From a virus, in the IMG/VR virus record IMGVR_UViG_3300042465_000486, positions 1 to 34,026 of that record: a stretch of 34,026 nucleotides of DNA; one strand, 5' to 3'. This document shows positions 6,732 through 32,062 of the stretch, piece after piece. The position numbers were made by a program, and so were the translations under genes. How positions within the stretch are numbered: the first letter of the stretch is position 1; each line of letters opens with the position of its first letter. The notes below the pieces were generated by a model. The model ran no database searches, was not told the origin of the DNA, and saw only the letters and a list, made by a program, of their open reading frames with translations.

Positions 6732-7352
6732 CTACCCCAGTGTTCTTGCTCGTGCGGTCAGAGAGCCGCCCGATGTTGTGCTTCGATCATCTGCGAGTTG
6801 CAGTTGATCAAGTCCAGCCAGGTACAGCGCAGACCAAACAGAGATTCTTGCGTCATCCTGTAGGTAAGGCGCGGCCTGCAAGAGTGCGCCGTACAGGTAG
6901 ATGTCGGGGGATGAGGTCAACAGGAAGTTTGTTGCGACAGTACTTGATAACTTAGTTAACTTTGCGTAGTAGGTAAGTTCGCCTGTGTACGCTGTGTCAG
7001 GGGATGGGACAACGCGAATCTGACTCCCGACGATGCTGAAGTACGTTGGTTTGCCTGCCGCGTTTGTGCGTGATGCCAATATGTCCAATGAGTCCATAGT
7101 CTCAAACTGCATCGGAGTCACTGGGTTTGTATTTAACTTGAAAGACCTTGTCTCCAAAAAGTTGTCAGGAACCGCGCTGTACTCGCTGTTGATGTACGCA
7201 TCCGCACGGACAATCATCTGACGTGTACGCAAGTTGCGTTCAATCTGAGCCTCGGCCAGAGAGATAAAGTCAGGGATTGCAGCCGTCAGGTCGGCACGGA
7301 CAAGCCAGTCCGCTAATGATGCCTTGAGTTCGGTGTATGTCGTTAGAGCCAT
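6732..7352 (-). CDS. Head-tail adaptor (connector) protein, P22 gp4/SU10 adaptor-like
   Basis: 206 residues. It opens TYTELKASLADWLVRADLTA and then AIPDFISLAEAQIERNLRTR. This combination, a helix followed by 'DFI.LAE..I.R.LR.R', marks the adaptor that docks beneath the portal ring in podoviruses. The middle has YSAVPDNFLETRSF and YFSIVGSQIRVVPSPDTAYTG, giving a small beta domain, then YYAKLTKLS and the helical YLYGALLQAAPYLQDDARIS. It shares one base (TAATG) with the preceding glycosyltransferase gene. It acts in the virion neck. Good family match by pattern, not checked by search. Confidence 0.75.
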   Translation of the reverse strand: MALTTYTELKASLADWLVRADLTAAIPDFISLAEAQIERNLRTRQMIVRADAYINSEYSAVPDNFLETRSFKLNTNPVTPMQFETMDSLDILASRTNAAGKPTYFSIVGSQIRVVPSPDTAYTGELTYYAKLTKLSSTVATNFLLTSSPDIYLYGALLQAAPYLQDDARISVWSALYLAGLDQLQLADDRSTTSGGSLTARARTLG

Positions 7353-8008
7353 TAGGTAGCCTTTTCCTTTTCCTCAAGGTCACGCATGACCCATGTGTGG
7401 TCGTGCTTGAATTCAAACGTCCCAATGTGTCCAATTTCTTTAGACACATCGTGGTCAATCCATATCTTAAACCCTGCGGCCTGCGCCTTGCGGCAGAAGA
7501 AAATATCCTCACCAATGTAGCCACGTTTGTCGGTGCGCCAGGGAGTCTCGAACCAAGGCTCTGTCAATGCCTCAAAGACGTTACGCTTGATGAGCATTAC
7601 GCCCATCCCGATGCTGCCAACTTCCTCAACGCCTGTGGATTCGGGCATTGTGTAGACCAACTCGCGCTCTCCGTCAGGGCCGTACTTCTGAGCCGTTGGA
7701 CCTGTCGGCATCCTGCGACGTGCGCAGTTGGTGGCCACGATGTCAAGGTCGTGCTTGAGCAGCCGCTCAATCATGTCCTGCGGGAACGTCATGTCCGAGT
7801 CAACAAACAGGACGTGGGTGCAGTTCTCTCGCATCGCATCAAGGCAAAGGTCTGCTCGTTGGTTTTGGATCAGCGTACCCTGCATGATCTTCAGAGCAAT
7901 TGCGTCTGTGGTGTTCAGCGTGTGGTACGTGACCATGTTGACCAAACAATAGGTGTAATTTGCGTGGACCATGTCACGCGCTGGGGTGCAGACTGCAATG
8001 TAATTCAT
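7352..8008 (-). CDS. Glycosyltransferase-like protein (GT-A fold)
   Basis: 218 residues. The N-terminus MNYIAVCTPARDMVHANYTY is a GT-A nucleotide-binding strand. LIQNQRADLCLDAMRENCTH and VLFVDSDMTFP follow, the latter giving a DxD motif at Asp70-Ser-Asp72 for metal and sugar-nucleotide binding. A further acidic site (RGYIGEDIFFCRKAQAAGFK) matches the second acidic motif of family-2-like enzymes. GHIGTFEF lies near the end. The substrate is unknown: virion proteins, host surface sugars or DNA are all possible. It is embedded in the head/neck operon between a small protein and the adaptor, with overlaps on both sides, so a virion-linked role is attractive. Confidence 0.72.
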   Translation of the reverse strand: MNYIAVCTPARDMVHANYTYCLVNMVTYHTLNTTDAIALKIMQGTLIQNQRADLCLDAMRENCTHVLFVDSDMTFPQDMIERLLKHDLDIVATNCARRRMPTGPTAQKYGPDGERELVYTMPESTGVEEVGSIGMGVMLIKRNVFEALTEPWFETPWRTDKRGYIGEDIFFCRKAQAAGFKIWIDHDVSKEIGHIGTFEFKHDHTWVMRDLEEKEKAT

Positions 8009-10598: not shown

Positions 10599-12770
10599 TT
10601 ACGCCATTCCTGTAGGGTTGATGGGCGCAGCCATAGGTTGCATCGCCTGATTGACGATATTTGCCTGTTGCTGCAATACTTCTCGATCCATTGACTGCGC
10701 AGCCTTAATCTCCGCAGTACTGATCTGTGTGTTGTACTTTAACTCAAGTTCGTATTTCTTTAGTAGTCCATCTTGTGCCATTTGGTCACGACGGAAGTCA
10801 TCGTCACGAATCATCTGATCGCGCTTGAGTTCCAACTCAGCCGCCTTCTTCTGAATGTCGGCTTCAATTGACTTGGCTTGGACATCTGCCAGCACCTGTT
10901 CAGGTGTTGGTTTTGGCTCTGGGGCTGGTGGTGGCTGGTAGTCGGCAGGGATTGCGTTGAAGTACTGGCTGGTGTCGGCAAAGCCGGACATTTCCACAAT
11001 CTTGCGCAATGTGTAGGCGTACTGAGACGGGGTCACCAATGGGTTCTGTGGTCCGAGTTGGGTCAGAGCCTCCTGCTGCTTTCCAGAAATCATCATCAGT
11101 GCCTGCATACGCTCGTTCATGTCGCCGTTGCCAAGACCGATATTAATGTTTACGTCCATGTTGGCATTCCACGCACGGGGGTCAATCTCCACAAAGTCGT
11201 TGCGCAGGCGAATCATCCGAGGCTTGTCCTGGTGCGTAGTCATCAGGAACAGGATTCCCTTAAAGAGTTTCTTCATGCCCTCGGCCATCAGTCGTGCCGT
11301 CAGTTCAATCCGACCTTGGCTTGCGCTGATGGTGGCATTGACTGCCGCCTTAGTGCTGGATTGCAGTGCGTCAGCATTAAGACCCATAGCAGCCTTGCTC
11401 ATGCCGGTGCGGTCTTCTTTGATCTGGTCGATGTAGTCCAGCATCGGGAAGGCTGCCTGTCCGACAAATGGGGTGGAGAACGGCTGCACCATGCCAGGCG
11501 CACGCATACGAATCACTGCCCCAGTCTCGTTGTTCAGCACGTCATCCATGTTGACCTGACCCTCAACCACCGCAGTGCGGGGGTGAATGGCCTGCGCCAA
11601 AGAGTCAAGGGTGTTGCGCAAAATCTCGGACTTGATCTCTTGGATGTCGTGCGTGATGTCAAAGATGGACATCGCCTCAAGTGGGGATGTGTGTGGCTCT
11701 GGGTCGCAGGGGAAGTCCACGAATGGGTTGTAAGACGCGGGTAAGTTGCGGACAACCTTGTAACCTGCTCCGATACAGCAAATCTTGCGCAACTCAGGGA
11801 TGCCATCGCCGTCATAGTCAATCCGTGCATATGCCTCGATGTACAGGGCGCGGCGTTGCATTGGGTTGGCAGAGTCGTTGGTTCCAAAGGTAGTGGACAG
11901 GGGCTGGCGAGCCAAGTACTCCTCGTTGTTGTCCAAGTCGGTGGAACTCATGTTCTCCTCGATCTCGTCCTGGTCGTAGCCCATTGACAGCAACTCAGCA
12001 ACAGTTGCCATCTTTCGGTGGGCGATGATGCTGGCATCGTCAAAGGAACGTGCGCGGCGATCAAGCAATAACTCTTCGGGTGGGACGGCCATGATCTTGA
12101 TTCGGCCATCCTTCATCACGCGCTTGATCTGCACGTCGTGCAGCATCGGGAGTGGTGGAGCCAACATCTGACCCGACATCGGATCAATTTGTGGTGGCAA
12201 AACCATTACATTAGGGTCAGGGTACGAGACAACAATCTTGACCTCGGCTGCTTCCTGCTCAAGAATCTGAAGGGTCTGGTCATCGAGTCCGCTGTACTCT
12301 TCGATTCGGACGCTTTCGACCTCCTCCCACCAGTACTTTGCAATTCCGCACTTACGCACTAGTGCGTCTTTGAAAATCGCGTAGGTGGTCATGAAACCGT
12401 TGTTGTCCTTGGTAAAAATGAAGTTGGCGTAGTCGGTGGCCTGCTTGGAACTCTCTACGTCTTCAGGACCCTGCGGGGTGTACTCGACAACATTCTCTGT
12501 GCTGAAAAATACACGCATCAGGCTGGGCAGCATTGCGCTGACGGTGTCGCGGACTTCCATCGCCACGACCTGGGAACGCCCTTCTTCCTCATTCCCGAAG
12601 GGATCGCCACGGTAGTACTCAGTCCCACGGGCGCGGGTTGGAGAGATGTCGGTGTCGATATAACTGATTGCGTCGGTGATGTCCTGCGTAATGATCGCCT
12701 GCAACTCGTCATCGTCCATCGGCTCCTGCGCTGAGACATCGGTGCTGATTGGGAGTTCGTTCATGTTCAT
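10599..12770 (-). CDS. Portal protein, SU10/N4-type podovirus portal
   Basis: 723 residues. RARGTEYYRGDPFGNEEEGR, then EVRDTVSAMLPSLMRVFFST, is the diagnostic start of large podovirus portals. YANFIFTKDNNGFMTTYAIF and the DALVRKCGIAKYWWEE segment follow, then VPPEELLLDRRARSFDDASI, a DYDGDGIPELRKICCIGAGY strand pair and the pore-region motif EDRTGMSKAAMGLNADALQ. The last ~130 residues (ADVQAKSIEADIQKKAAELE onwards) are a long charged helix suited to the barrel domain. The ATG overlaps the methyltransferase stop (ATGA). As the dodecameric vertex ring it docks terminase, adaptor and internal proteins. Length fits the family. Confidence 0.87.
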   Translation of the reverse strand: MNMNELPISTDVSAQEPMDDDELQAIITQDITDAISYIDTDISPTRARGTEYYRGDPFGNEEEGRSQVVAMEVRDTVSAMLPSLMRVFFSTENVVEYTPQGPEDVESSKQATDYANFIFTKDNNGFMTTYAIFKDALVRKCGIAKYWWEEVESVRIEEYSGLDDQTLQILEQEAAEVKIVVSYPDPNVMVLPPQIDPMSGQMLAPPLPMLHDVQIKRVMKDGRIKIMAVPPEELLLDRRARSFDDASIIAHRKMATVAELLSMGYDQDEIEENMSSTDLDNNEEYLARQPLSTTFGTNDSANPMQRRALYIEAYARIDYDGDGIPELRKICCIGAGYKVVRNLPASYNPFVDFPCDPEPHTSPLEAMSIFDITHDIQEIKSEILRNTLDSLAQAIHPRTAVVEGQVNMDDVLNNETGAVIRMRAPGMVQPFSTPFVGQAAFPMLDYIDQIKEDRTGMSKAAMGLNADALQSSTKAAVNATISASQGRIELTARLMAEGMKKLFKGILFLMTTHQDKPRMIRLRNDFVEIDPRAWNANMDVNINIGLGNGDMNERMQALMMISGKQQEALTQLGPQNPLVTPSQYAYTLRKIVEMSGFADTSQYFNAIPADYQPPPAPEPKPTPEQVLADVQAKSIEADIQKKAAELELKRDQMIRDDDFRRDQMAQDGLLKKYELELKYNTQISTAEIKAAQSMDREVLQQQANIVNQAMQPMAAPINPTGMA

Positions 12771-13261
12771 ATCGGTACTTTCTTCAAGATCACGTACATG
12801 GAATCAACGGCGCGGGGTGTCCGCATCAATTCCTCTTGGGGTAATTCTAGGCTAGCACCGAACTTACTGAGCCGGCACTCAAGGTGGATCATCTCGAACT
12901 TGGTGTCCTTCCAGCCCAAGTACCACGACCACTCGCAGTAATAAACCCACGACTTCTCGTTGAAGGCGCGGACGTGCGTCGGGTCTTGCCAGGCTCCCAG
13001 GCTCAAGTCGTAGGGTACGTGGATGTGCATCTCGCCACCCATCTCCAACATATCCCTGCAATTCTTCATGGCCGCCACTAGGTCGGGCAGGTGTTCGAGT
13101 ACGTCGTTGGCAATGATCTGAGAGAACTGGCGGCTTGGCACTGGCTTGCAGATGTCCATCACCCAGTCGGCTCCGACATCATCACGGATGTCTGCGTTGA
13201 TACAACCCTCGCGCCGGTCTTTGCCGGAGCCGAGGTTAAGAATTAAACCAGTCTGCTGCAT
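12767..13261 (-). CDS. Class I SAM-dependent methyltransferase-like protein
   Basis: I place the start at the ATG at 13261 (164 residues), not at the longer upstream frame, because this begins just before the fold: MQQTGLILNLGSGKDRREGC. LNLGSG is motif I (SAM binding), INADIRDD gives the acidic motif II, and QIIANDVLEHLPDLVAAMKN is the motif IV region. EMHIHVPYD and a Trp-rich HVRAFNEKSWVYYCEWSWYL follow. This type is usual beside glycosyltransferases that modify sugars or lipids. It overlaps the glycosyltransferase-like gene by 26 bases and the portal gene by 4. The target is unknown. Confidence 0.7.
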   Translation of the reverse strand: MQQTGLILNLGSGKDRREGCINADIRDDVGADWVMDICKPVPSRQFSQIIANDVLEHLPDLVAAMKNCRDMLEMGGEMHIHVPYDLSLGAWQDPTHVRAFNEKSWVYYCEWSWYLGWKDTKFEMIHLECRLSKFGASLELPQEELMRTPRAVDSMYVILKKVPI

Positions 13262-13934
13262 AACGTGGCCTGTTTTCAATGATCCAAGGTTTGGCCTGGG
13301 CAGTAAGTTTTTCTCCGTCAAGGCCAATAGTTTGCGAACCGAGGTGGTGAACGTAGGATCGGGATAGGTAGTGCTGGAACCCAGCGGCTCGCAGGTCTTC
13401 ACAGTGGACATCGTCGGAGTACCAGTTCAGGGGTGGGAACTTGAACGTGTTCCACGCCTCGTCGCTGATCCACCCGAATATCGGGGAAAGGCACTGCATC
13501 GGGATGATGGAGTCCTCGTAGGGGTATTTGAAGTAATTCAGTTTTTCATTGAACGGGTTCGACCTGATGTTCTGCACAGGTCGGGCTGCGTCGCATCTTG
13601 CAGATACCCAGCCCAAGGGTTCCTTAAACTGCTTCTTGAGTTGCAGCACGTCTTCAAGCAGGTACTTGTAACTGGTGGGGGTTACAACAATGTCATCGTT
13701 GGCCACCACCACGGAACTGAAACCATCGGAGAACGCCTTGTCGATGATGGCGTTGTAGGCGTCACCGAAGTTGCTCTTGTCGCCCTCCATCTTGTAATCG
13801 GCCTCGAAGTGGCTGATGACGTGCAAAGGTCCGCGCAGGTAAACGGGAGCCTCTGGGCAGTACTCGTCGATACTTGCCAACATTACGGCAAGACCCTTGC
13901 CGGTAACGGTTGAGATGCAAATCGGAGAAATCAT
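13236..13934 (-). CDS. Glycosyltransferase-like protein
   Basis: The start is taken as the ATG at 13934, whose first bases overlap the previous stop (ATGA), giving 232 residues; a longer frame reaches 14003 but would run deep into the previous gene. MISPICISTVTGKGLAVMLA is a GT-A-like first strand. FGDAYNAIIDKAFSDGFSSV leads to VVVANDDIVVTP, a DxD-type site at Asn79-Asp-Asp81. SPIFGWISDEAWNTF, NWYSDDVHCEDLRAAGFQHY and YVHHLGSQT match acceptor-side motifs of phage family-2 enzymes. It pairs with the methyltransferase downstream. Substrate not known. Confidence 0.65.
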   Translation of the reverse strand: MISPICISTVTGKGLAVMLASIDEYCPEAPVYLRGPLHVISHFEADYKMEGDKSNFGDAYNAIIDKAFSDGFSSVVVANDDIVVTPTSYKYLLEDVLQLKKQFKEPLGWVSARCDAARPVQNIRSNPFNEKLNYFKYPYEDSIIPMQCLSPIFGWISDEAWNTFKFPPLNWYSDDVHCEDLRAAGFQHYLSRSYVHHLGSQTIGLDGEKLTAQAKPWIIENRPRYAADWFNS

Positions 13935-17168: not shown

Positions 17169-17603
17169 CTAAGTGGACAATTTGGGTGTGGACAAGTCCT
17201 CTAGCACCTCGACGTGGCGCAGCGCGTCCATGCGCATACCTTGGATGTTGATGCTGACCTGCTGACCCTTCTGCTGCGCGTAAGCAGGTGCATTCCACCT
17301 CTCAGCAGTCCAGTGGCGCGTTTGGATGCGTAGTTTGGCTAGGTTGACCTCCTCGATGGACGCTGAGTCCGCGATGTCCAGCGCATCGGACACCATCAGA
17401 TCAGCCGCCCTCACACGCGCACGCGAGACCAATTCTACGTTCTCTGGCTTGCTTAACCACACATTCATAGCCGTCCGACCCACGCCTAACGCCATACATA
17501 CCCGCGTAATCGACTTGCCCTCCTCCAGCATCACGATGATCTGTTCCTGCGGAATTTGATCCAATTTAATCAAGTCCTCCTTACGTTTCGGTCTACCAGC
17601 CAT
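17169..17603 (-). CDS. terS: Terminase small subunit
   Basis: 144 residues. A basic start (MAGRPKRKEDLIKLDQIP) is followed by an HTH-like segment at about residues 31-52 (SITRVCMALGVGRTAMNVWL). RARVRAADLMVSDALDIAD and the conserved VNLAKLRIQTRHWTAERWN follow; this 'KLRIQTRxWxAERW' piece is a hallmark of Sf6/P22-type small terminase subunits. The C-terminus is short (SINIQGMRMDALRHVEVLED). It binds the packaging site and regulates the large subunit. Ribosome-binding sequence AGAAAGGG lies upstream of the ATG. It precedes the large subunit across a repeat-bearing spacer. Confidence 0.85.
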   Translation of the reverse strand: MAGRPKRKEDLIKLDQIPQEQIIVMLEEGKSITRVCMALGVGRTAMNVWLSKPENVELVSRARVRAADLMVSDALDIADSASIEEVNLAKLRIQTRHWTAERWNAPAYAQQKGQQVSINIQGMRMDALRHVEVLEDLSTPKLST

Positions 17604-18416: not shown

Positions 18417-18629
18417 TTTATCCTACAAATGGACTCCATTTGTCTACCATTTGTCTACCATTTGTAGGACAGATTGCTTCTTTTCTGCTTAAATAACAAG
18501 CAGTTTTCTCATTTCTGATCTTCCATTTGCGTACCATTTGTAGGATTTTCTGCATCAAAACTGCTCTTTTGGCTCATCTTTGAACACAACCCAAACGTAA
18601 TCCTTGAAGATTTCCACTCCATTTGCGTA
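18361..18629. repeat. CAAATGG-core repeat block upstream of unknown gene and downstream of primase-helicase
   Basis: At least nine copies of a CAAATG/CATTTG core appear in both orientations. TCCTACAAATGG lies at 18364-18375 and 18421-18432, with inverted forms at 18402-18413 (one base different), 18458-18469 and 18534-18545. CCATTTGTCTA occurs in tandem at 18436-18446 and 18447-18457. CCATTTGCGTA lies at 18523-18533 and at 18619-18629, the last copy inside the 3' end of the primase gene. The tandem spacing is 11 bases, one helical turn, as in protein-binding iterons. The stretch 18325-18554 has no convincing gene. Confidence 0.75.
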
Positions 18630-20609
18630 CAGAAATTCGCGTTTATGGCGGCTAAATTCGTTCGATATTTGCTTGGGTGTCTTACCGTGACCCCACACTT
18701 GGGTAAACTTTTCAAGCCAATAATCAATCTTCACGGCCTTGTTTCTCTTGCCATCCAAGTCCCTCATCTCACCAAATTCCTTGATCGCCTTGTGCAAAGA
18801 GTCAAGACAGATTTGCTGGTTCTTACCAACACCTGACCTGCTTGGCGGCTTTTTCTCCTTCTTTTCCGTGTCCGCCATGACCCTCGTTGCCTCATCCGAA
18901 GGGTTAACGGCAAGGCTGATGACGGGTTCCAAGCCCAAACTGGACGCTGATAACTGCACCTCGACCATCTCGAATCCGATCTTGATGTTGTCCGCGCCGT
19001 CCTTTTGCTTGCTGATAGTTAGCAGTCCCGAACCCGCAATCCCGTCACGCCGGCCACCTTCCATCTTCAGCAGTTCCAATTGCGTGTCCACGGCTCCGAG
19101 TAGCGATGAGTGGCCGCGCAGCCCTCTGGTGGCATCCTTCCCACTGTGGTGCAAGATCATGATGGTGCAGTCCAGCATCCTCTGTACCCGTCCAATATTG
19201 GTGATGAACGCGCCCATGTCTTGTGAGTCGTTCTCGTTGCCGCCGCCGAAGGCTCGTGCCAAGGTATCTATTTGCAGCAGGCTGAACTCCACGCCCGTCT
19301 CGTTGATGAGTTGCTGGATGGACAGCATCAGGAGGTTGAAGTCCTCCTCACTCGATCTCAGGTTGAGTTGGTGTCTGATGACGTAGATTTCCGCGCCCTG
19401 CTGGGTGTTGTTGTGTATCTTGCAAGCCCTGATCCTTGCCCCAATACCGCCATGTCCCTCTCCGCATATATATAGGACTGCGCCTGGAGTCTTGATCTCG
19501 TTACCCATCCACGTCCTGCCCGTCGCCACCGCCTCTGCAATGTCCAAGGCAATGAAGGACTTGTATGAGCCTGGCGGTCCGTACAGGGCGACAAACGACT
19601 TCTTGGGTATGACCTTCTCGATCAGCCATTCCACTGGCTCGTCCTGAATCGTGTCCCATGACTCGATGTTCAAGAACAAAGGCTTGGCCTTGGTTGACTC
19701 CTCGTGCATAGGCGCGTTGGAGTCGTAGTCATCCTGTGATGTATTTTCGCTGTGCGAGTCGTACTGTTCGCTGTTCGTTGCGGTATCCGTTTCCGTGATG
19801 GCTGGGAGTTTCTTTGCAAGGTCTGCGAGTTCAGCCCTCGTGCCTCCCATCTTCACCCACTCGAAGGCATCATCGCCAGGGAACGGAAGGTCCAAGTCCA
19901 AGTACCTGATGGACTTGGCCACCGGCAATAGGTTCTTGATTACCTTCTTGGCGTACTCCTGTCCCGCCTTGTCGTTGTCTGGCACGACCACCACGTTTGC
20001 CCCTGCGAAGTACTGCGTAATCTCAGCAGGCCAATGCCCAGCCCCAGCGTGTGACGTTGTGGCTATGGCTCCGATGGACACCAGCGCATCCGCTGCCTTC
20101 TCACCCTCCACTAAGTAGATAGCTCTGCCTGCCGTCTTTGCGTCCAGTAGTTCGGGGAATCGGTACGGCACGATGCGGACATCTCCAAGGCGCGAGTGCC
20201 TTCTGCCGAGTGCGTCAACCCTGACCAGCCTGTAGTCCTTGCCCTTCTCCGTGTTCGTCTTGAACCTCTGCTTGATGAACAGGGTGTTCCTGTCCTCGTC
20301 CATGTACTCCCACTCCTGCTCCAACGTCATGGGCTGCGGAGCGAGCGTGGCCAGGCTGCTGAATATCTCCTCGCGTTTAGGTAGTTCCGGCAAAAGACCC
20401 CTGTCCTTGATCGCGTTGAACACGTCCTGCTGGTCGCACCCGCCGTGGCAGTGGAACAGGTACTTCCCGTCCTGGGACTCTGTGATCGATAGGCTTGGGT
20501 TCTTGTCCCCGTTGCCCTTACCGTGCGATTGGACTGGGCAAGATGCCAGCCACGATCCGTTTGCTTGCTTTGCGTTGCCTAGTGCCTGCGCTATTTGTTC
20601 GGCTTGCAT
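18555..20609 (-). CDS. Primase-helicase (Zn/Toprim primase fused to RepA-like helicase)
   Basis: 684 residues. Residues 1-75 form a zinc-binding primase domain (CPVQSHGKG..., FHCHGGC, with Cys24, His29, Cys54 and Cys58 as likely ligands). A Toprim domain follows, with YLVEGEKAADALVSIG (Glu169) and VVVVPDNDKAGQEYA (Asp211, Asp213). After an acidic linker (about 270-310) comes a RecA-fold helicase of the RepA/AAA_25 type: Walker A is GPPGSYKS (344-351), Walker B is LLQIDTLARAFGGG (Asp448), and the sensor is IMILHHSGKD. The fusion supplies priming and DNA unwinding for phage replication. Its 5' end overlaps the glycosyltransferase gene by 19 bases. Strong assignment. Confidence 0.9.
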   Translation of the reverse strand: MQAEQIAQALGNAKQANGSWLASCPVQSHGKGNGDKNPSLSITESQDGKYLFHCHGGCDQQDVFNAIKDRGLLPELPKREEIFSSLATLAPQPMTLEQEWEYMDEDRNTLFIKQRFKTNTEKGKDYRLVRVDALGRRHSRLGDVRIVPYRFPELLDAKTAGRAIYLVEGEKAADALVSIGAIATTSHAGAGHWPAEITQYFAGANVVVVPDNDKAGQEYAKKVIKNLLPVAKSIRYLDLDLPFPGDDAFEWVKMGGTRAELADLAKKLPAITETDTATNSEQYDSHSENTSQDDYDSNAPMHEESTKAKPLFLNIESWDTIQDEPVEWLIEKVIPKKSFVALYGPPGSYKSFIALDIAEAVATGRTWMGNEIKTPGAVLYICGEGHGGIGARIRACKIHNNTQQGAEIYVIRHQLNLRSSEEDFNLLMLSIQQLINETGVEFSLLQIDTLARAFGGGNENDSQDMGAFITNIGRVQRMLDCTIMILHHSGKDATRGLRGHSSLLGAVDTQLELLKMEGGRRDGIAGSGLLTISKQKDGADNIKIGFEMVEVQLSASSLGLEPVISLAVNPSDEATRVMADTEKKEKKPPSRSGVGKNQQICLDSLHKAIKEFGEMRDLDGKRNKAVKIDYWLEKFTQVWGHGKTPKQISNEFSRHKREFLYANGVEIFKDYVWVVFKDEPKEQF

Positions 20610-21502
20610 AGTTGTTCTTTCTTGTGTAGTGTTTCTAAATCTACAAGCGTCAATCCATAATTGTTTATTTTTGGAAGTTGGTTTGTATTAATGATTTTTA
20701 TCAACTTGTTATTCTTAAATTGAGAGTAATCAACGTGGTGATGCCACCTATTAAATTTAAATACAACCTTAGAGACATCAGGGTGCATATCAACTAACAT
20801 TTGACTCTTTGGTAAAGTCCCTTCTGAATCGTAAAAATCAGCACTGTTACCACCACGCATTCTTTGTGTGGTTATTTTTCCGCAAAGAAAAGCATTAAAT
20901 TGGATTGTGCAAAGTCCATCTTTTAAAACCCTAAGACTAAGATCGGTATCCTCGTTGTAACGTCCACGCCAACGGTAACCGGAAGCGTTTTCAATCAGAA
21001 GACAAGAATAGATTCTGGTGTTTAAGATATAAGGTGGAACTGGGTCAGTCTTTTTACAAAAAGAGTAGTAGTTCAAGCCAGAAACTGGGACATTGGAATA
21101 CCTACAAACAAAGTCCTCCGCGGCTTTTAGAGTGGCTCCAGTTCTTACTTCAAATTTTTCATTTTTGTTGAGGTAGTGAAAGGCATCGATGTTGTCATCC
21201 ATGACCCAATGACGAGCAAAACCAAGCCATATAGAGTGATCTATGCAAAAGTTGCGAGCAGGGCCAGGCCCCGTGCTTTTCCCAAACCCAAGTTCATCGC
21301 AAAGTTCGTACTCAGCCTTGTATATTGGTGGAAGGATTAGCAACTCTCCGTAACAACGCCCACCACGATACAAATCAACCTCATCCTCCTCAACCACAAT
21401 AAAATGTGGAACACCCATCTCATACAAAGCACGAGTCGTTAATCCATTGTCATAGCGTCCTTTAGACACGATGTAAACAGGGAAATTAGGTAGCATCGAC
21501 AT
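20591..21502 (-). CDS. TET-associated-type glycosyltransferase (putative DNA base glycosylation)
   Basis: 303 residues. The diagnostic set is present: VYIVSKGRYDNGLTTRALYE, FIVVEEDEVDLY, LLILPP, STGPGPARNFCIDHSIWLG (about 76-94), HWVMDDNIDAF (Asp102-Asp103), GRYNEDTDLSLRVLKDGLCT (about 180-199), FNAFLCGKITT and MRGGNSADFY. I recognise these as motifs of the TAGT family, GT-A-like enzymes proposed to attach sugars to hydroxymethylated pyrimidines made by TET/JBP oxygenases in phage DNA. No TET/JBP gene or pyrimidine hydroxymethylase is visible here, so the acceptor is open. It is AT-richer than the neighbours and overlaps the primase and the 78-residue gene. Confidence 0.78.
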   Translation of the reverse strand: MSMLPNFPVYIVSKGRYDNGLTTRALYEMGVPHFIVVEEDEVDLYRGGRCYGELLILPPIYKAEYELCDELGFGKSTGPGPARNFCIDHSIWLGFARHWVMDDNIDAFHYLNKNEKFEVRTGATLKAAEDFVCRYSNVPVSGLNYYSFCKKTDPVPPYILNTRIYSCLLIENASGYRWRGRYNEDTDLSLRVLKDGLCTIQFNAFLCGKITTQRMRGGNSADFYDSEGTLPKSQMLVDMHPDVSKVVFKFNRWHHHVDYSQFKNNKLIKIINTNQLPKINNYGLTLVDLETLHKKEQLCKPNK

Positions 21503-21722
21503 ATACTTTTTTCGATAGTCCCCAATGGGACTTAAATGGATGCCAAATGCTCTTGGTCTTAACGGTAAGTTTTTGGTTAATCAATTCTCCAAAATCTTTG
21601 TAATCTTGCTCTGTTTCAAATCGAACCATTAACTCTTTGTACGGTTCTTTTTTATCTTGAGTGAACTCAGGCATTCCTACCCACTCAGGATGTTTATCAA
21701 ATAAATCGTTGCTGCTTGTCAT
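21486..21722 (-). CDS. Small protein linked to the glycosyltransferase (78 aa)
   Basis: 78 residues: SNDLFDKHPEWVGMPEFTQD, then KKEPYKELMVRFETEQDYKD and FGELINQKLTVKTKSIWHPF. The 'PxWxGMPEFxQ...PYxxLxVRFETExDYxxFxxLINQxLTxKTKSIWxP' form is one I recognise from small phage proteins that often lie near DNA-modification genes. It overlaps the glycosyltransferase by 17 bases, suggesting a joint function, for example target recognition or regulation. No catalytic motif is visible. Function is inferred from linkage only. Confidence 0.62.
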   Translation of the reverse strand: MTSSNDLFDKHPEWVGMPEFTQDKKEPYKELMVRFETEQDYKDFGELINQKLTVKTKSIWHPFKSHWGLSKKVYVDAT

Positions 21723-21748: not shown

Positions 21749-21778
21749 AAAAAAAAGCCGAGGCTGTTACACCTCGGC
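21749..21778 (-). terminator. Rho-independent terminator after SSB-like gene
   Basis: In minus-strand RNA, a perfect 7-pair stem (21772-21778 with 21757-21763, GCCGAGG/CCTCGGC) with an 8-base loop is followed by eight U residues (21756-21749). It lies 16 bases after the stop of the SSB-like gene and before the small protein/glycosyltransferase pair, so it separates the recombination operon from the primase block. Confidence 0.9.
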
Positions 21779-27260: not shown

Positions 27261-27448
27261 TGAAGAAATTAGAAGACATGACGCAAGAAGAAAAAATAGA
27301 AGCCTTCAATACGCTTCAGATTTTTATTGAGTCAGCAGTTGAGTCCGAACAAGACGAACCAAAACTATTTAAACTTGAGACAGAACTAAGGATTAATTTG
27401 GTTCTTGTCACTCTAAAAGAGATTTTTGGTTTGCGAGATACTGCATAA
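27260..27448 (+). CDS. Last early gene, small acidic protein (62 aa)
   Basis: I take the ATG at 27260, which shares a base with the previous stop (TGATG); a TTG one codon upstream is unlikely. MKKLEDMTQEEKIEAFNTLQ, then IFIESAVESEQDEPKLFKLE and TELRINLVLVTLKEIFGLRD. Acidic and helical. Its 3' end overlaps the oppositely directed 421-residue gene by 41 bases. Function unknown. Confidence 0.6.
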   Translation: MKKLEDMTQEEKIEAFNTLQIFIESAVESEQDEPKLFKLETELRINLVLVTLKEIFGLRDTA

Positions 27449-28673
27449 CTCCATCAAGCCATTCTTGATTTGTTGGCTGGATTGGTTTTGACAATTGGAA
27501 TGAGCGTACATCTCCACTTATTGGCGTATTAGCCATCCTGCGTTTTTTATACCAATCAGGGAACAAAGTCTCCTTTGGAAGTGACTGCTCAAGGCCACCA
27601 AAATACTCTCCTGCCAATTGCGTGTCGTATGTTTTATGTGGTGATACTGGATTTGTAATCAAGTCAGCACCAGGTTTCATCTTGCCAATTGCAAGGCCAC
27701 CAGAATACATTGGCTCATTGAGTAGCAATGGGTCTGTGATGGCGTAGCGAGTGTAGGCAATGTTTGGGAAACCTGCATTTTGGAATTCATCCAACTGCAT
27801 ACGGTCTACAAATGCATGACGCAATGCTCCGTTTGACTCAAGTTGTGCGCGAGATTCAGGATGCATCACGCCTTTCCACTCAGGCCGCAATGCCTTAACC
27901 TGTTTATCAAAAGATGCAATATCTTTCTTAAAGATTTTTCCTGCTTTCATTTGCTCAAGCAATGCATCAGACATCATGGTATTGAAATTCATCGACTCCG
28001 GACCCATTGCTGAGTACACGCCAAAAACATCACCCTTTCCAATCCTTGCGGCCTCATCAACTGCGTTTTGCAATGCTGTAGAAGCACCTTTTTCTGATGC
28101 CCAAATTGACCCAGTTGGTGACTGCATTCGCATGAAGTCATATCCACCCTCAAGTGGAACTGGTGTTTGGAATTTAACGTTACCAATGCCAAGTAGATTT
28201 TGACCTGCCGCAGATCGATCACCAACAAATGGAACGATTGCGCCACCCTGCATATTTTCTGGTGACGCAATAATCTTTTGAGGTAGATTTGCAATGGGTT
28301 GCAAGTCCATCTTCATCTGTGATACTGGTATCGGCAACTTCTTGCCAGCACCAATGTCGTGCCAATATCCTAATGCTTCTGCTTGGGCAGCACTCATTCG
28401 AGGTGCTTTTATAACTCCAGCAGGTGCAAATGACATTGCACCAGACATTGTCATATCTGTTAAATCAGATAATGCACTTTGATCGGTGACCTTCATTGGG
28501 TTTTTAGGATCACCAAATGCTTTAGCGTAAAGTTCTTGGTACTTCTTATCGGTATCAGATATTGCACTTAACCCAGAAGATAGCAGTCCACCAATACCTT
28601 GCATTTGCTGCGTTCGCAATGGACTTTTCATCCATCCAAGTGCATCTCCAAGCAAACCAGTAAATTCAGCCAT
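27408..28673 (-). CDS. Internal virion/ejection-type protein, polyvalent-like domain (421 aa)
   Basis: 421 residues. The N-terminus is soluble (MAEFTGLLGDALGWMKSPLR) and a Gly/Ser-rich segment follows (GIGGLLSSGLSAIS). Then comes a conserved block: ALGYWHDIGAGKKLPIPVSQ, GGAIVPFVGDRSAAGQNLLG, TPVPLEGGYDFMRMQSPTGS, GDVFGVYSAMGPESMNFNTM and IAYTRYAITDPLLLNEP. This resembles domains I have seen in phage ejected proteins and 'large polyvalent' proteins. HPESRAQLESNGALRHAFVD and LAGEYFGGLEQ complete it. The order after the other internal proteins fits a protein delivered with DNA. No enzyme motif is certain. Confidence 0.5.
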   Translation of the reverse strand: MAEFTGLLGDALGWMKSPLRTQQMQGIGGLLSSGLSAISDTDKKYQELYAKAFGDPKNPMKVTDQSALSDLTDMTMSGAMSFAPAGVIKAPRMSAAQAEALGYWHDIGAGKKLPIPVSQMKMDLQPIANLPQKIIASPENMQGGAIVPFVGDRSAAGQNLLGIGNVKFQTPVPLEGGYDFMRMQSPTGSIWASEKGASTALQNAVDEAARIGKGDVFGVYSAMGPESMNFNTMMSDALLEQMKAGKIFKKDIASFDKQVKALRPEWKGVMHPESRAQLESNGALRHAFVDRMQLDEFQNAGFPNIAYTRYAITDPLLLNEPMYSGGLAIGKMKPGADLITNPVSPHKTYDTQLAGEYFGGLEQSLPKETLFPDWYKKRRMANTPISGDVRSFQLSKPIQPTNQEWLDGVMQYLANQKSLLE

Positions 28674-28685
28674 GTCTGTACCCTT

Positions 28686-30635
28686 TTACTTTTGTTGTGT
28701 TGGCTGAAGGCGACCTGCACCGATCTGAGTGACTGCCCCAGGCGCGCCGACTGCTACCTTGTAGGATAAACGCTTAATGGTGTCCTGTAACGCAGCCATC
28801 GCGCTCTCATCAACCAAAGCATTGCGAACAACTTGAGGGTTTTGAGATACAAGAATTCTTGCGATTTGATCTGACTGCGCATCTGTCAAGTTGCCGGTGT
28901 TCTGTCCCACCAACTTGCGCAGGACTCGGTATCCCGACATGAAGTTACCGCCAAGTGCGCTGGTGACCTCTTCGGGGGAGATGTTCATCCCGATACGCTT
29001 ACCTTGCTGTAAGTTTAATGCTGTATTAGAACCGCCAAGAACTCCGGTGGCTGCACGTTGAGAGCCAGCGGCCACGTTGACGGCTCCAAGCAAACTGTCT
29101 AACTGATCTTGAGGGAACACACTGCGCAAAATCTGACCCTCTTTACGTTCTTCATCGGCAAACTGCCCCATCACGCTCTTGCGTGATCCAGTAGCCATAC
29201 GAGCGCGCGTTGCGTCCATCAGACCTGACCGATACGCCTGCTTTGCGGCAGGAGACATAGACTCAAACTCTACAGCGACTTCGTCCGCGCTCTTGGTGAA
29301 CGCCTTGCGTCCCTCTTGGAACGCGTCACGCGCAGACCGAGTCTGTGCAGCCGTCTGTCTAGCAGTAGCCAAAGCCGGAGATGACTGGTTAAGGGAGTTT
29401 CGCAACTGCAACTCAACGTCCTTGAGGGCAGAACCAACGCCTCCAGCACCCTGGGAGAACGCCTTGTTTGCCTCGTCCTGAATACCGCGACGGACAATCT
29501 CCATGTCCTCAATGTTAGGGGTTCGGCTGTACTCAATGTTCCCGTCCTTGAACGTAAAGAATGGGGCCTTGCCTGTTGTGGCTCGGTACAGTTCATTGAT
29601 CTTAGTAGCGGCCTGTGGAGCGCGTTGCAGGGCCGCTGAGAAGGCATCAAGCATTGGCTTGTCAACTACACCGCCCTGCTCAAATGCGGCGTTGTACATG
29701 GCGTTCTCTGCGATCTTAATGTCTTCCTCATCCATTTTGTACTGGCGCAGGACATTTTTATCTCCCTTTGGATACAACCCAGCGCGCATCTGCTTCATCG
29801 CCGCATCACGCATTATGTTGGGGCGCGTAGTGAGTGCCTTTTTTATTGTGGCTGACGCAGGACCGCCTTGGGTGTACATAGTGCGAACCATTGACTCCAA
29901 GGTGGCGTTCTCTGCCATGATCTCGCCCTTGGCTATCCTGTCCACGATCTCGTCAGTGGTAAGCCCTGACTCTGTGGCTAAGCGTTGGATTTCAGTCTCA
30001 ACAGCCTTTGCGCCACGGCCTCCAATGGTGCGCCTTGTAAAGTCAATCAGTTTATTGGCCACTGCGCCACCGCCAGTGAGAAGCGTAGTCCCGACTGGGC
30101 CAGCAACTGTTCCAACAGCCATGCCAGGAACAACACGCCCTGACCTTTCAAAGAAGTCACCCTCACCAGTTGCAAACCCAGTCAGTCCACCCTGCAAGGC
30201 TCCAACGCCAGCGGCGCGAGCCAATAACGCAGGGAGTGCGACTGGGGCAGCAGCACCACCCGTTAAGGTTGTGGCCGCGATTGCAGGCAATATTGCGCCA
30301 CCAGCCTCATACGCAAGAGCCTCGTAAGGGCTGTCTTTCCTGTACGCCTCTAACTTTGATCTGATGTCTGCAACTGCCGCGTCGTAAGGTACACCGGCCA
30401 AAGATTGAAGGTACGCCTCCAACTCATCGGAACTGCCAAAGGTAATACCCTGCGCAAGAGAACGCAGTCTCTGACTTGGAGTCTCACCTTGAGGTGCTTG
30501 TGGTGCTGGTGCGAGCGCGGCCTGCACTGCCTGCAACTTTGGCAGCGGGATGGCGTTGTTGTTACCCGCCTTGAGTGCTTGCAACTCCTCGACGGTGAAG
30601 GTATCAAGAACCTGTTGCAGATCAGTTTGTGCCAT
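28686..30635 (-). CDS. Internal virion (DNA ejection) protein (649 aa)
   Basis: 649 residues. The N-terminal 60 residues (LQQVLDTFTVEELQALKAGN) are soluble, with FGSSDELEAYLQSLAG next. A long Gly/Ala/Val-rich segment follows (ILPAIAATTLTGGAAAPVAL, GVGALQGGLTGFATGEG, AVGTVAGPVGTTLLTGGGAV), which looks able to enter membranes, as in P22/T7 internal virion ejectosome proteins. The middle and C-terminus are helical (ATKINELYRATTGKAPFF, LKDVELQLRNSLNQSSPALA). It follows the 475-residue protein with a one-base overlap (30635). An ejection-channel role is inferred. Confidence 0.62.
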   Translation of the reverse strand: MAQTDLQQVLDTFTVEELQALKAGNNNAIPLPKLQAVQAALAPAPQAPQGETPSQRLRSLAQGITFGSSDELEAYLQSLAGVPYDAAVADIRSKLEAYRKDSPYEALAYEAGGAILPAIAATTLTGGAAAPVALPALLARAAGVGALQGGLTGFATGEGDFFERSGRVVPGMAVGTVAGPVGTTLLTGGGAVANKLIDFTRRTIGGRGAKAVETEIQRLATESGLTTDEIVDRIAKGEIMAENATLESMVRTMYTQGGPASATIKKALTTRPNIMRDAAMKQMRAGLYPKGDKNVLRQYKMDEEDIKIAENAMYNAAFEQGGVVDKPMLDAFSAALQRAPQAATKINELYRATTGKAPFFTFKDGNIEYSRTPNIEDMEIVRRGIQDEANKAFSQGAGGVGSALKDVELQLRNSLNQSSPALATARQTAAQTRSARDAFQEGRKAFTKSADEVAVEFESMSPAAKQAYRSGLMDATRARMATGSRKSVMGQFADEERKEGQILRSVFPQDQLDSLLGAVNVAAGSQRAATGVLGGSNTALNLQQGKRIGMNISPEEVTSALGGNFMSGYRVLRKLVGQNTGNLTDAQSDQIARILVSQNPQVVRNALVDESAMAALQDTIKRLSYKVAVGAPGAVTQIGAGRLQPTQQK

Positions 30636-32062
30636 TATCTTGTCTTCCGTTTGATTGCTTCGTCAATAGCATTATTCACTCGAAGGTTCCCACTAAGGTC
30701 AGTCTGCGAGGTGTACGGAATCACCTGATACATTACTCCAACATCGCTAAAGCCAGGAACCTTCATGGCAGTTGCGTAAGTATCTTGGTGTTCTTTTATG
30801 CGCTGGTTAGCAAGTTTTTGCATAGCCGCCATACCAGTACGCAACTCAGCCGCTGTCATTGTCTGATCTCCGGCTGCTGTACGTTTTATCAAGGAACGCT
30901 CATTTTCAGTAATAGCACCCTGACCTCTCATTGAAGCCGCAGCAGCAAGTTCAGACTGTGCAAGACCCTGAACTACTTGACGTGTGTCTTGCAGAGTCTT
31001 CTCAGCATCAGGTCCGGCAATATTTAACTGCTTGGCAACACGTAGCATTGAAGTTCTGTAATCAGCGGCTGGTCCAAGAACTGCGGTATCAAGAGCAGGG
31101 GCAATCATGTCAATATTTCGCAAAGTATCGTTAGCACCTTTTGCTGCAAAAAGAGTACCTTTTAGAATTTCAATTGCACCAGTTCCACCGGCTGTAGCCA
31201 TGCTGTTTGGTCCAGGTGGTAACTTGACTACAGTGTTAGGGGCAATTTGAGAACGATACTGTCCTAATGCCGCTGTGCCTTCTGCCCCAGTTCCACCAAG
31301 TGGACGGCCTTGTAAGTATTCAACTGCGCGAATGTCAGATGACTGAGCCTCATAAGGTTGCGCGTCACTAACAATTCTGCGCTGTCCTTGCTTGTTGTAC
31401 TGGACAACAACAGGCTTATTTCCAATCATTAGGTTCTGTGGTGCGCCATACTCTTGCGACGCAGTGATAACGTCAGTCATTGACTTTGCAAGTTGATCCG
31501 CTGGAAGGAGAGACATCAACGCCCTTTGCTCCCGACTTAAATTAGCAAATGGGCTGCTTTGCTGTGCTTGCTGCATAGGCTGAACCTGTGCCTGCGTTGG
31601 AAGTTGTCCAATCATGTTAGCGCGATCCACTGTAGGACCGGCAGGCATATTAGGTACTGCGAGTGACTGTTCAGGTGTAATGGCAACACCGGCAGTTGGC
31701 ATTGAAGTGACTGGCACTCCTTGGCCGTAATCACCCATAAGCATTTTCTGCATACCTGAAAGCAAATCCCTTGAACGCTTGGCCTCATCCAACTTCTGTC
31801 TCGTGGCGATGTTGGCAATAGCACCTTGTTGCGCCTGCTGATAACCTTGCTGCCCAGCACCGTAAGCCTCACCCAAAGCCTGTCCAATCCCGATTGGGAC
31901 TGCGCTTGGACCTGATGACTTGAGAAGGGACGCGGCCAACGCCATGATCCCCTGATTGTTCATCCTTGCGCGTTGCTCTTCGGTGAGATACTCCTCAAGA
32001 CCAGTATCTCCACCGCCAAACATATTGGAGCCAAGAAGACCACCAAAATCAAAAGTTGCCAT
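30635..32062 (-). CDS. Internal virion or tail-associated protein (475 aa)
   Basis: 475 residues. Opening: FDFGGLLGSNMFGGGDTGLE, then EYLTEEQRARMNNQGIMALA and GPSAVPIGIGQALGEAYGAG. Gln/Ala-rich helices follow (QQGYQQAQQGAIANIATRQK). The later part is a helical domain with IDMIAPALDTAVLGPAADYR, VVQGLAQSELAAAASMRGQG and ENERSLIKRTAAGDQTMTAA. The 'MRGQGAITENERxLxxxxA' element is common in phage structural/ejection proteins. It is one of five right-arm virion genes in a row. A specific role cannot be read from the sequence. Confidence 0.58.
   Translation of the reverse strand: MATFDFGGLLGSNMFGGGDTGLEEYLTEEQRARMNNQGIMALAASLLKSSGPSAVPIGIGQALGEAYGAGQQGYQQAQQGAIANIATRQKLDEAKRSRDLLSGMQKMLMGDYGQGVPVTSMPTAGVAITPEQSLAVPNMPAGPTVDRANMIGQLPTQAQVQPMQQAQQSSPFANLSREQRALMSLLPADQLAKSMTDVITASQEYGAPQNLMIGNKPVVVQYNKQGQRRIVSDAQPYEAQSSDIRAVEYLQGRPLGGTGAEGTAALGQYRSQIAPNTVVKLPPGPNSMATAGGTGAIEILKGTLFAAKGANDTLRNIDMIAPALDTAVLGPAADYRTSMLRVAKQLNIAGPDAEKTLQDTRQVVQGLAQSELAAAASMRGQGAITENERSLIKRTAAGDQTMTAAELRTGMAAMQKLANQRIKEHQDTYATAMKVPGFSDVGVMYQVIPYTSQTDLSGNLRVNNAIDEAIKRKTR

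What the first reader, a model, noticed from the sequence alone, without database searches (positions are those of the whole stretch)
20591..21502. Orphan TET-associated glycosyltransferase: possible glycosylated base in the phage DNA
The protein carries the set VYIVSKGR, GPGPARNF, MDDNI, NEDTDLSLR and GGN that I associate with the TAGT family, which is proposed to glycosylate hydroxymethylpyrimidines in phage DNA. No TET/JBP oxygenase, thymidylate-synthase-like hydroxymethylase or base-modifying kinase is visible in this window. Either the partner lies elsewhere in the genome, or this enzyme uses a base made by another route. The gene is next to the primase-helicase, as expected for modification during replication.
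Basis: partly seen in the sequence, partly recalled or inferred. Interest (0 to 1): 0.62.

Follow-up and report, generated by a model that had tools for sequence, protein, structure and literature searches.

The report
TAGT sugar-transferase with conserved small partner
This phage gene really belongs to a family of enzymes that put sugars on phage DNA, but instead of the usual partner that prepares the base it travels with a small uncharacterised protein (and, in relatives, a DNA-clamp-like ParB domain), so what it decorates is open and can now be tested.

Summary
The 303-aa product at 20591-21502 (-) is a TAGT-family (PF20691) GT-A glycosyltransferase (E 4e-47) with all the motifs named, overlapping the primase-helicase gene. 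No TET/JBP or thymidylate-synthase-like gene is in the 34-kb window, which is probably a fragment.

It is not simply an orphan. Directly upstream, overlapping by 17 nt, is a 78-aa gene (21486-21722) carrying an uncharacterised 'WxxMPEF' domain. In 116 of 121 related loci this domain is fused to the TAGT or encoded beside it (control: 1 of 455 other ORFs). In about half of the bacterial loci it carries an N-terminal ParB domain. A second TAGT clade, about 24% identical, has ParB alone (63 of 71), including viruses of archaea and E. coli prophages (885 of 5426 complete genomes). Homologous ParB domains elsewhere are fused to DNA methyltransferases, and two otherwise syntenic Lactobacillus phages carry TAGT or a methyltransferase in the same slot.

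Best reading: a recruiter-plus-transferase cassette that sugar-modifies phage DNA without a phage-encoded TET or, in small phages, hydroxymethylase. The DNA target is inferred (about 0.6); the acceptor group and sugar are unknown. Orphan TAGTs have been noted in print; I found no description of the partner cassette.

The parts
20591..21502 (-). TAGT-family glycosyltransferase, 303 aa, predicted GT-A fold
   Evidence: PF20691 4.1e-47; PHROG 842 4.8e-51; AlphaFold2 mean pLDDT 92.2, pTM 0.90; Foldseek best matches are GT-A enzymes COLGALT1 and GnT-I
21486..21722 (-). 78-aa 'WxxMPEF' partner protein, end of gene overlapping the TAGT start by 17 nt; fused to TAGT or to ParB in relatives
   Evidence: 116 of 121 TAGT loci (14 fused, 102 adjacent, 95 of them overlapping); control 1 of 455 other ORFs; reciprocal search by partner 68 of 72; no hit in Pfam, PHROGs or NCBIfam
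21757..21778 (-). terminator-like hairpin (8 pairs, 6 GC) followed by T8, just upstream of the partner gene; start of the pair's transcription unit or read-through control, not shown
   Evidence: pattern scan, 3 found against 1.9 expected by chance in the region; sequence
18555..20609 (-). primase-helicase, downstream neighbour, overlaps the TAGT gene by 19 nt; context only
   Evidence: AAA_25 5e-38, weak Toprim; PHROG primase/helicase families
17169..17603 (-). terminase small subunit; context only. The cassette lies between replication and packaging genes, as in many relatives
   Evidence: PF20901 3.5e-14; terminases are the commonest downstream neighbours and AAA_25/DnaB helicases the commonest upstream

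Best explanation
A two-part DNA-modification cassette. The TAGT is the catalytic half: a GT-A glycosyltransferase that would move a sugar from a nucleotide-sugar through its metal-binding DDN motif and the ED and R/H motifs. The WxxMPEF protein is a small non-enzymatic subunit that binds the TAGT and brings it to its substrate; in relatives it carries a ParB domain, a DNA clamp in well-studied ParB proteins. The target is probably phage DNA after replication or before packaging, in the slot that other phages fill with ParB-linked DNA methyltransferases. The acceptor is not supplied by TET and, in small phages, not by a recognisable hydroxymethylase; it is either made by an unrecognised or host enzyme or is a group already present on DNA. 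Shown: family, motifs, partner linkage, ParB linkage, exchange of slot with a methyltransferase, absence of TET in the records searched. Inferred: DNA as target, recruiter role of the partner, protection from host defence as purpose. Unknown: acceptor atom, sugar.
For: TAGT family. Partner linkage: 14 fused plus 102 adjacent of 121, 95 overlapping, control 1 of 455; reciprocal 68 of 72. ParB-WxxMPEF proteins with 21 of 47 bacterial TAGTs, and a ParB-WxxMPEF-TAGT triple fusion in L029. Second TAGT clade with ParB directly upstream in 63 of 71, and in HHTV-2, an archaeal virus. These ParB domains match PHROG 498, 'DNA methyltransferase' proteins with an N-terminal ParB region (E 1e-42 to 1e-47). 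Natural swap: phages jlb1 and Lj771 share syntenic DNA on both sides (77% up to the ParB N-domain, 85% from the terminase on), but jlb1 has TAGT and Lj771 an N6_N4 DNA methylase between. In some relatives a DNA methyltransferase lies between partner and TAGT (L126, L155, L165). T6 TAGT (PF20691, 4.8e-11) sits beside dCMP hydroxymethylase, the P12024L TAGT beside TET and a DNA methylase. No TET in 50 records, with working control.
Against: No member of the WxxMPEF or ParB-only clades has, to my knowledge, been tested biochemically. No acceptor-making enzyme is identified, and O-glycosylation of DNA needs a hydroxyl that ordinary bases lack. Petrov et al. 2010 note that T4 relatives lacking gene 42 probably lack major cytosine modification, some being cut by type II enzymes that fail on T4 DNA (PMC2993671); Aeh1 and 65, with related TAGTs, are among those lacking it. 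The nearest solved structures act on protein or glycans (COLGALT1, GnT-I), but the fold is generic. ParB is common near phage terminases in any case.
Confidence: 0.58

Rival explanations
1. Conventional hypermodification with a missing part: the TAGT glycosylates 5-hydroxymethyl-C or -U made by a hydroxymethylase in the unsequenced part of this phage or by an unrecognised phage enzyme.
For: The window is probably a fragment. PF00303 genes occur in 5 of 50 related records, including the four large phages 65, Aeh1, PTm1 and Kuja. T6 and P12024L TAGTs work next to base-oxidising or hydroxymethylating enzymes.
Against: 45 of 50 records lack PF00303 and all 50 lack TET. Phages 1.076.O, 1.124.O, jlb1, c5 and an E. 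coli prophage record lack both, as far as searched (TET was not searched in the E. coli record). Gene 42 is reported only from phages other than Aeh1 and 65 (PMC2993671).
Confidence: 0.2
2. Protein glycosyltransferase: the TAGT modifies a protein, such as ParB, the WxxMPEF subunit, a virion protein or a host DNA-binding protein, and ParB positions it on DNA-bound proteins.
For: Best structural matches are protein-glycosylating or glycan-extending enzymes (COLGALT1, GnT-I). No base-making partner in small phages. GREB1, a eukaryotic relative, carries a TAGT domain (PMC6163654) and has been reported to glycosylate a protein (own knowledge, not read here).
Against: Exchange of slot with a DNA methyltransferase and methyltransferases inside the cassette point to DNA. 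The only biochemically assigned phage member known to me, T6, acts on DNA (PMC13216743). Foldseek matches at TM 0.4-0.5 say only GT-A.
Confidence: 0.16
3. RNA or another target, for example phage or host tRNA, or a surface glycan.
For: Aeromonas phage 65 carries its TAGT gene among tRNA genes. Phage glycosyltransferases often alter host surface glycans (discussed in PMC7029224).
Against: The tRNA neighbourhood is not shared by the other loci read. Top neighbours are replication and packaging genes, and ParB linkage is hard to explain this way.
Confidence: 0.06

Closest known systems
T-even beta-glucosyl-HMC-alpha-glucosyltransferase (T6/T2 TAGT, PF20691)
   Same: Same Pfam family (T6 4.8e-11, window 4e-47), similar size; the 2026 NAR paper predicts a GT-A fold for T6, as found here.
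   Different: T6 gene sits beside dCMP hydroxymethylase and acts on already glucosylated hmC; no WxxMPEF domain found in T6; not found by tblastn with the window protein even at E 10.
TET/JBP-TAGT pairs, e.g. Nonlabens phage P12024L gp26-gp27
   Same: PF20691, small phage, replication-region neighbourhood; a DNA methylase follows.
   Different: TET (5.9e-27) takes the place directly upstream where the window has the WxxMPEF protein; about 23% identity; no WxxMPEF in that genome.
Solitary TAGTs of phages (288 of 753 genomes, PMC13216743)
   Same: TAGT without alpha- or beta-glucosyltransferase; the window looks like one of these.
   Different: That paper's main text does not mention ParB and treats them as potentially novel transferases; the partner cassette is the added finding.
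ParB-linked DNA methyltransferases of phages (PHROG 498)
   Same: Homologous ParB domain, and in the jlb1/Lj771 pair the same slot before the terminase.
   Different: Effector is a methyltransferase, not a glycosyltransferase; this window has the WxxMPEF domain without ParB.
ParB-TAGT ('GREB1-related protein') module of E. coli Rac-type prophages
   Same: TAGT overlapping an upstream recruiter-type gene, next to terminase; at least 80% of the module in 885 of 5426 complete E. coli genomes.
   Different: ParB-only clade without WxxMPEF; separate branch of the TAGT tree.

Membership tests
TAGT (PF20691) | full-length profile match above curated cut-off | tested here: met
   161.2 bits against 27.5, profile 1-205/205
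TAGT (PF20691) | GT-A fold with conserved DDN/DDD, ED and GG motifs | tested here: met
   AlphaFold2 pLDDT 92, GT-A neighbours; invariant residues across 49 sequences; motifs also shared with jlb1, c5, P12024L
TET/JBP-TAGT DNA hypermodification system | TET/JBP oxygenase gene with the TAGT | tested here: not met
   0 in the window and 0 of 50 related records; control P12024L found. The window is a likely fragment.
T-even hmC glucosylation system | dCMP hydroxymethylase (PF00303) in the genome | tested here: inconclusive
   not in the window; 5 of 50 related records have a PF00303 gene, four of them large phages, TS or HMase not resolved
T-even hmC glucosylation system | alpha- or beta-glucosyltransferase (PF11440/PF09198) in the genome | not tested
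   no such family among the window proteins scanned, but the related records were not searched for them
DNA glycosyltransferase | transfers sugar to DNA | not testable with these tools
   needs nucleoside mass spectrometry or an in vitro assay
ParB-linked DNA-modification modules | ParB domain in or beside the modification gene | tested here: not met
   the window's partner is the 78-aa WxxMPEF domain alone; ParB is present with 22 of 47 bacterial TAGTs of the clade but with only 1 of 81 viral ones

The most novel reading that the evidence does not exclude
The WxxMPEF-TAGT and ParB-TAGT cassettes glycosylate phage DNA directly, at a site needing no hydroxymethylated precursor, or sequence-selectively through the recruiter. 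That would be a branch of sugar-based DNA modification distinct from both the T-even and the TET routes, spread across bacteriophages, archaeal viruses and E. coli prophages.
Probability: 0.28. Interest if true: 0.88.

Novelty: new variant of a known kind. Interest (0 to 1): 0.6.

Why it matters
A 2026 paper counts 288 phage genomes with TAGTs that lack the usual glucosyltransferases and calls them potentially novel transferases (PMC13216743). The linkage to a WxxMPEF/ParB recruiter, the absence of TET and the exchange of slot with a DNA methyltransferase turn that open question into a specific hypothesis. The ParB-TAGT module in Rac-type prophages of hundreds of E. coli strains would allow a test in ordinary laboratory strains. 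If DNA is the target, hosts and defence systems face a sugar mark that searches for TET or hydroxymethylase would miss.

Tried and rejected
Generic GT family PF13692 in the window: no match. Mycobacterium phage Myrna as a TET control: negative; replaced by P12024L, positive. Class-wide sample of 274 genomes for TAGT: only the centre genome, so TAGT is rare in that sample. Plasmids: no match to the L009 TAGT. NCBIfam: no model for TAGT or partner. Genes between partner and TAGT in a few loci (methyltransferases, a possible second glycosyltransferase in L023, an unassigned protein in L175) were considered as acceptor-makers, but they are sporadic. Neighbour survey for a hidden base-making enzyme: none recurrent among 212 sequences scanned. 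Iyer et al. 2013, which proposed the TAGT family, is not held, so whether it already noted ParB or the small partner could not be checked.

Full report
What was checked. It matches Pfam TAGT (PF20691) over the full profile at E 4.1e-47, far over the cut-off, and PHROG 842 at 4.8e-51. Among 49 relatives the motif residues are invariant. AlphaFold2 gives a confident model (pLDDT 92, pTM 0.90), and its best matches in the PDB are GT-A glycosyltransferases, led by collagen hydroxylysine galactosyltransferase and GnT-I. The same profile finds the characterised T6 enzyme at 4.8e-11, next to dCMP hydroxymethylase, and the P12024L enzyme next to TET. The family call therefore stands.

The surroundings. 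The window is an IMG/VR virus record, linear without end repeats and probably a fragment. The genes around the locus run on the minus strand. In transcription order: exonuclease (DUF2800/PDDEXK), a 187-aa unknown, a terminator-like hairpin, the 78-aa partner, TAGT, primase-helicase, a 244-aa unknown, terminase small and large subunits, and further on portal, scaffold and major head protein. The partner overlaps the TAGT gene by 17 nt and the TAGT gene overlaps the primase by 19 nt (coordinates). No TET/JBP and no thymidylate-synthase-like gene is in the window.

The partner. The 78-aa protein has no Pfam, PHROG or NCBIfam match. Its signature is W-x-x-M-P-E-F, then an RF.....D...F.....Q segment and ..KTKSIW.P; in a 42-sequence alignment W14, M17, P18 and P62 are invariant. 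With few conserved polar residues it does not look like an enzyme (inference). In related loci (L001-L127 and the window) 121 TAGT genes have enough upstream sequence: 14 are fused to this domain, 102 have it on an adjacent gene (95 overlapping) and 5 lack it. Of 455 other ORFs of at least 250 aa in the same loci, 1 has it directly upstream. Many of these loci are related and not independent. A search started from the partner instead found TAGT close downstream in 68 of 72 loci. Of the other four, L154 stops at its contig end and L165 has a TAGT 2.7 kb further on.

ParB. In bacterial (prophage-like) loci the partner domain is often the C-terminal part of a ParB-domain protein, and L029 is a ParB-WxxMPEF-TAGT triple fusion. 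By an HMM built here, 22 of 47 bacterial TAGTs of this clade have ParB directly upstream or fused, against 1 of 81 viral ones. A second, distant clade of TAGTs (phage jlb1 type, about 24% identical) has ParB upstream in 63 of 71 cases and never the WxxMPEF domain. The ParB-TAGT pair also occurs in a haloarchaeal virus, HHTV-2, and in Rac-type prophages of E. coli (the Rac assignment rests on the ynaK and trkG genes). There, 885 of 5426 complete genomes hold at least 80% of the two-gene module, while a K-12 MG1655 record matches only over 212 bp in ynaK.

Link to DNA modification. The ParB domains of these cassettes match PHROG 498, 'DNA methyltransferase' proteins with an N-terminal ParB region, at E 1e-42 to 1e-47. 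Phages jlb1 and Lj771 are a natural exchange. Their DNA is alignable on both sides, at 77% identity up to the ParB N-domain and 85% from the terminase onward, but between these points jlb1 has the ParB C-terminus and TAGT and Lj771 an N6/N4 DNA methylase (PF01555 3.6e-27). In Lj771 the ParB region is not an intact annotated gene. In some relatives of the window a DNA-methyltransferase-like gene lies between partner and TAGT. These facts make DNA the most economical target, but they are circumstantial.

The missing base-maker. TET/JBP was found in 0 of 50 related records, while the same search rings in P12024L at 2.8e-29. Thymidylate-synthase-like genes were found in 5 of 50: the four large phages 65, Aeh1, PTm1 and Kuja, and one IMG/VR record. 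Small relatives 1.076.O, 1.124.O, jlb1 and c5 have neither; the E. coli prophage record lacks PF00303 and was not searched for TET. For Aeh1 and 65, with TAGTs 50-66% identical to the window's, Petrov et al. 2010 list no gene 42 and no gene 56 (PMC2993671). The control works: the PF00303 search finds T6 gene 42. Caveats: most records are fragments, and an unrelated hydroxylating enzyme would have been missed.

Tree. In a maximum-likelihood tree of 44 TAGTs the WxxMPEF-associated proteins form one side of a branch (93/93) and the ParB-only proteins fall on one side of another (98/74). T6 and P12024L have very long branches and their positions are not reliable. The window protein groups with L063, 1.076.O, 1.124.O and phage 65 (100/99).

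Interpretation. The evidence favours a recruiter-plus-transferase cassette acting on phage DNA near replication and packaging, without TET. What is shown is linkage, domain exchange and absence of TET in the records searched. What is inferred is the DNA target, the recruiter role and a protective function. The acceptor and the sugar are unknown. The main rivals are a missing hydroxymethylase, mainly for large phages, and a protein acceptor.

Prior knowledge. Solitary TAGTs have been reported (288 of 753 genomes; PMC13216743), and a 2021 paper lists an Aeh1 glucosyltransferase with 'unknown base', citing Iyer et al. 2013 (PMC8056088). Iyer et al. is not held, so prior mention of ParB or of the small partner could not be ruled out. 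NCBI annotates some of the E. coli genes as 'GREB1-related protein', a term found in no held paper.

Noticed in passing
window 7352-8008 (-): A second glycosyltransferase-like protein (Anp1 PF03452 1.9e-8, over cut-off; PHROG glycosyltransferases 3e-9) lies among head and tail genes, so the phage carries two GTs of different families.
   Followed up: partly
window 12767-13411 (-): Methyltransferase-like protein (PHROG 6636 5.6e-6, Methyltransf_23 3e-5, below that model's Pfam cut-off) directly upstream of the portal gene; type unclear.
   Followed up: no
window 28686-30635 (-): 649-aa protein matching only PHROG 5880 (unknown function, 5.9e-43); neighbours 27408-28673 and 30635-32062 have no Pfam or PHROG match.
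   Followed up: no
L023 4899-5981 and L175 6185-7237: Other genes lie between the WxxMPEF partner and the TAGT: a possible glycosyltransferase in L023 (PHROG 4356, E 0.0016) and an unassigned 351-aa protein in L175; they might add further sugars.
   Followed up: partly
L134 (Vibrio phage Kuja) 2581-5269; L005 5944-7859: Tandem pairs of TAGT genes in one operon.
   Followed up: no
E. coli genomes, e.g. NZ_CP023820 1563311-1564985; K-12 ynaK: Rac-type prophages carry a ParB-TAGT module in 885 of 5426 complete E. coli genomes; in K-12 only a 212-bp match within ynaK remains.
   Followed up: partly
L008 1895-4309: Large terminase next to a ParB-TAGT cassette carries intein/Hint domains; L035 2253-4826 has an intein-like insert in DnaB.
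   Followed up: no
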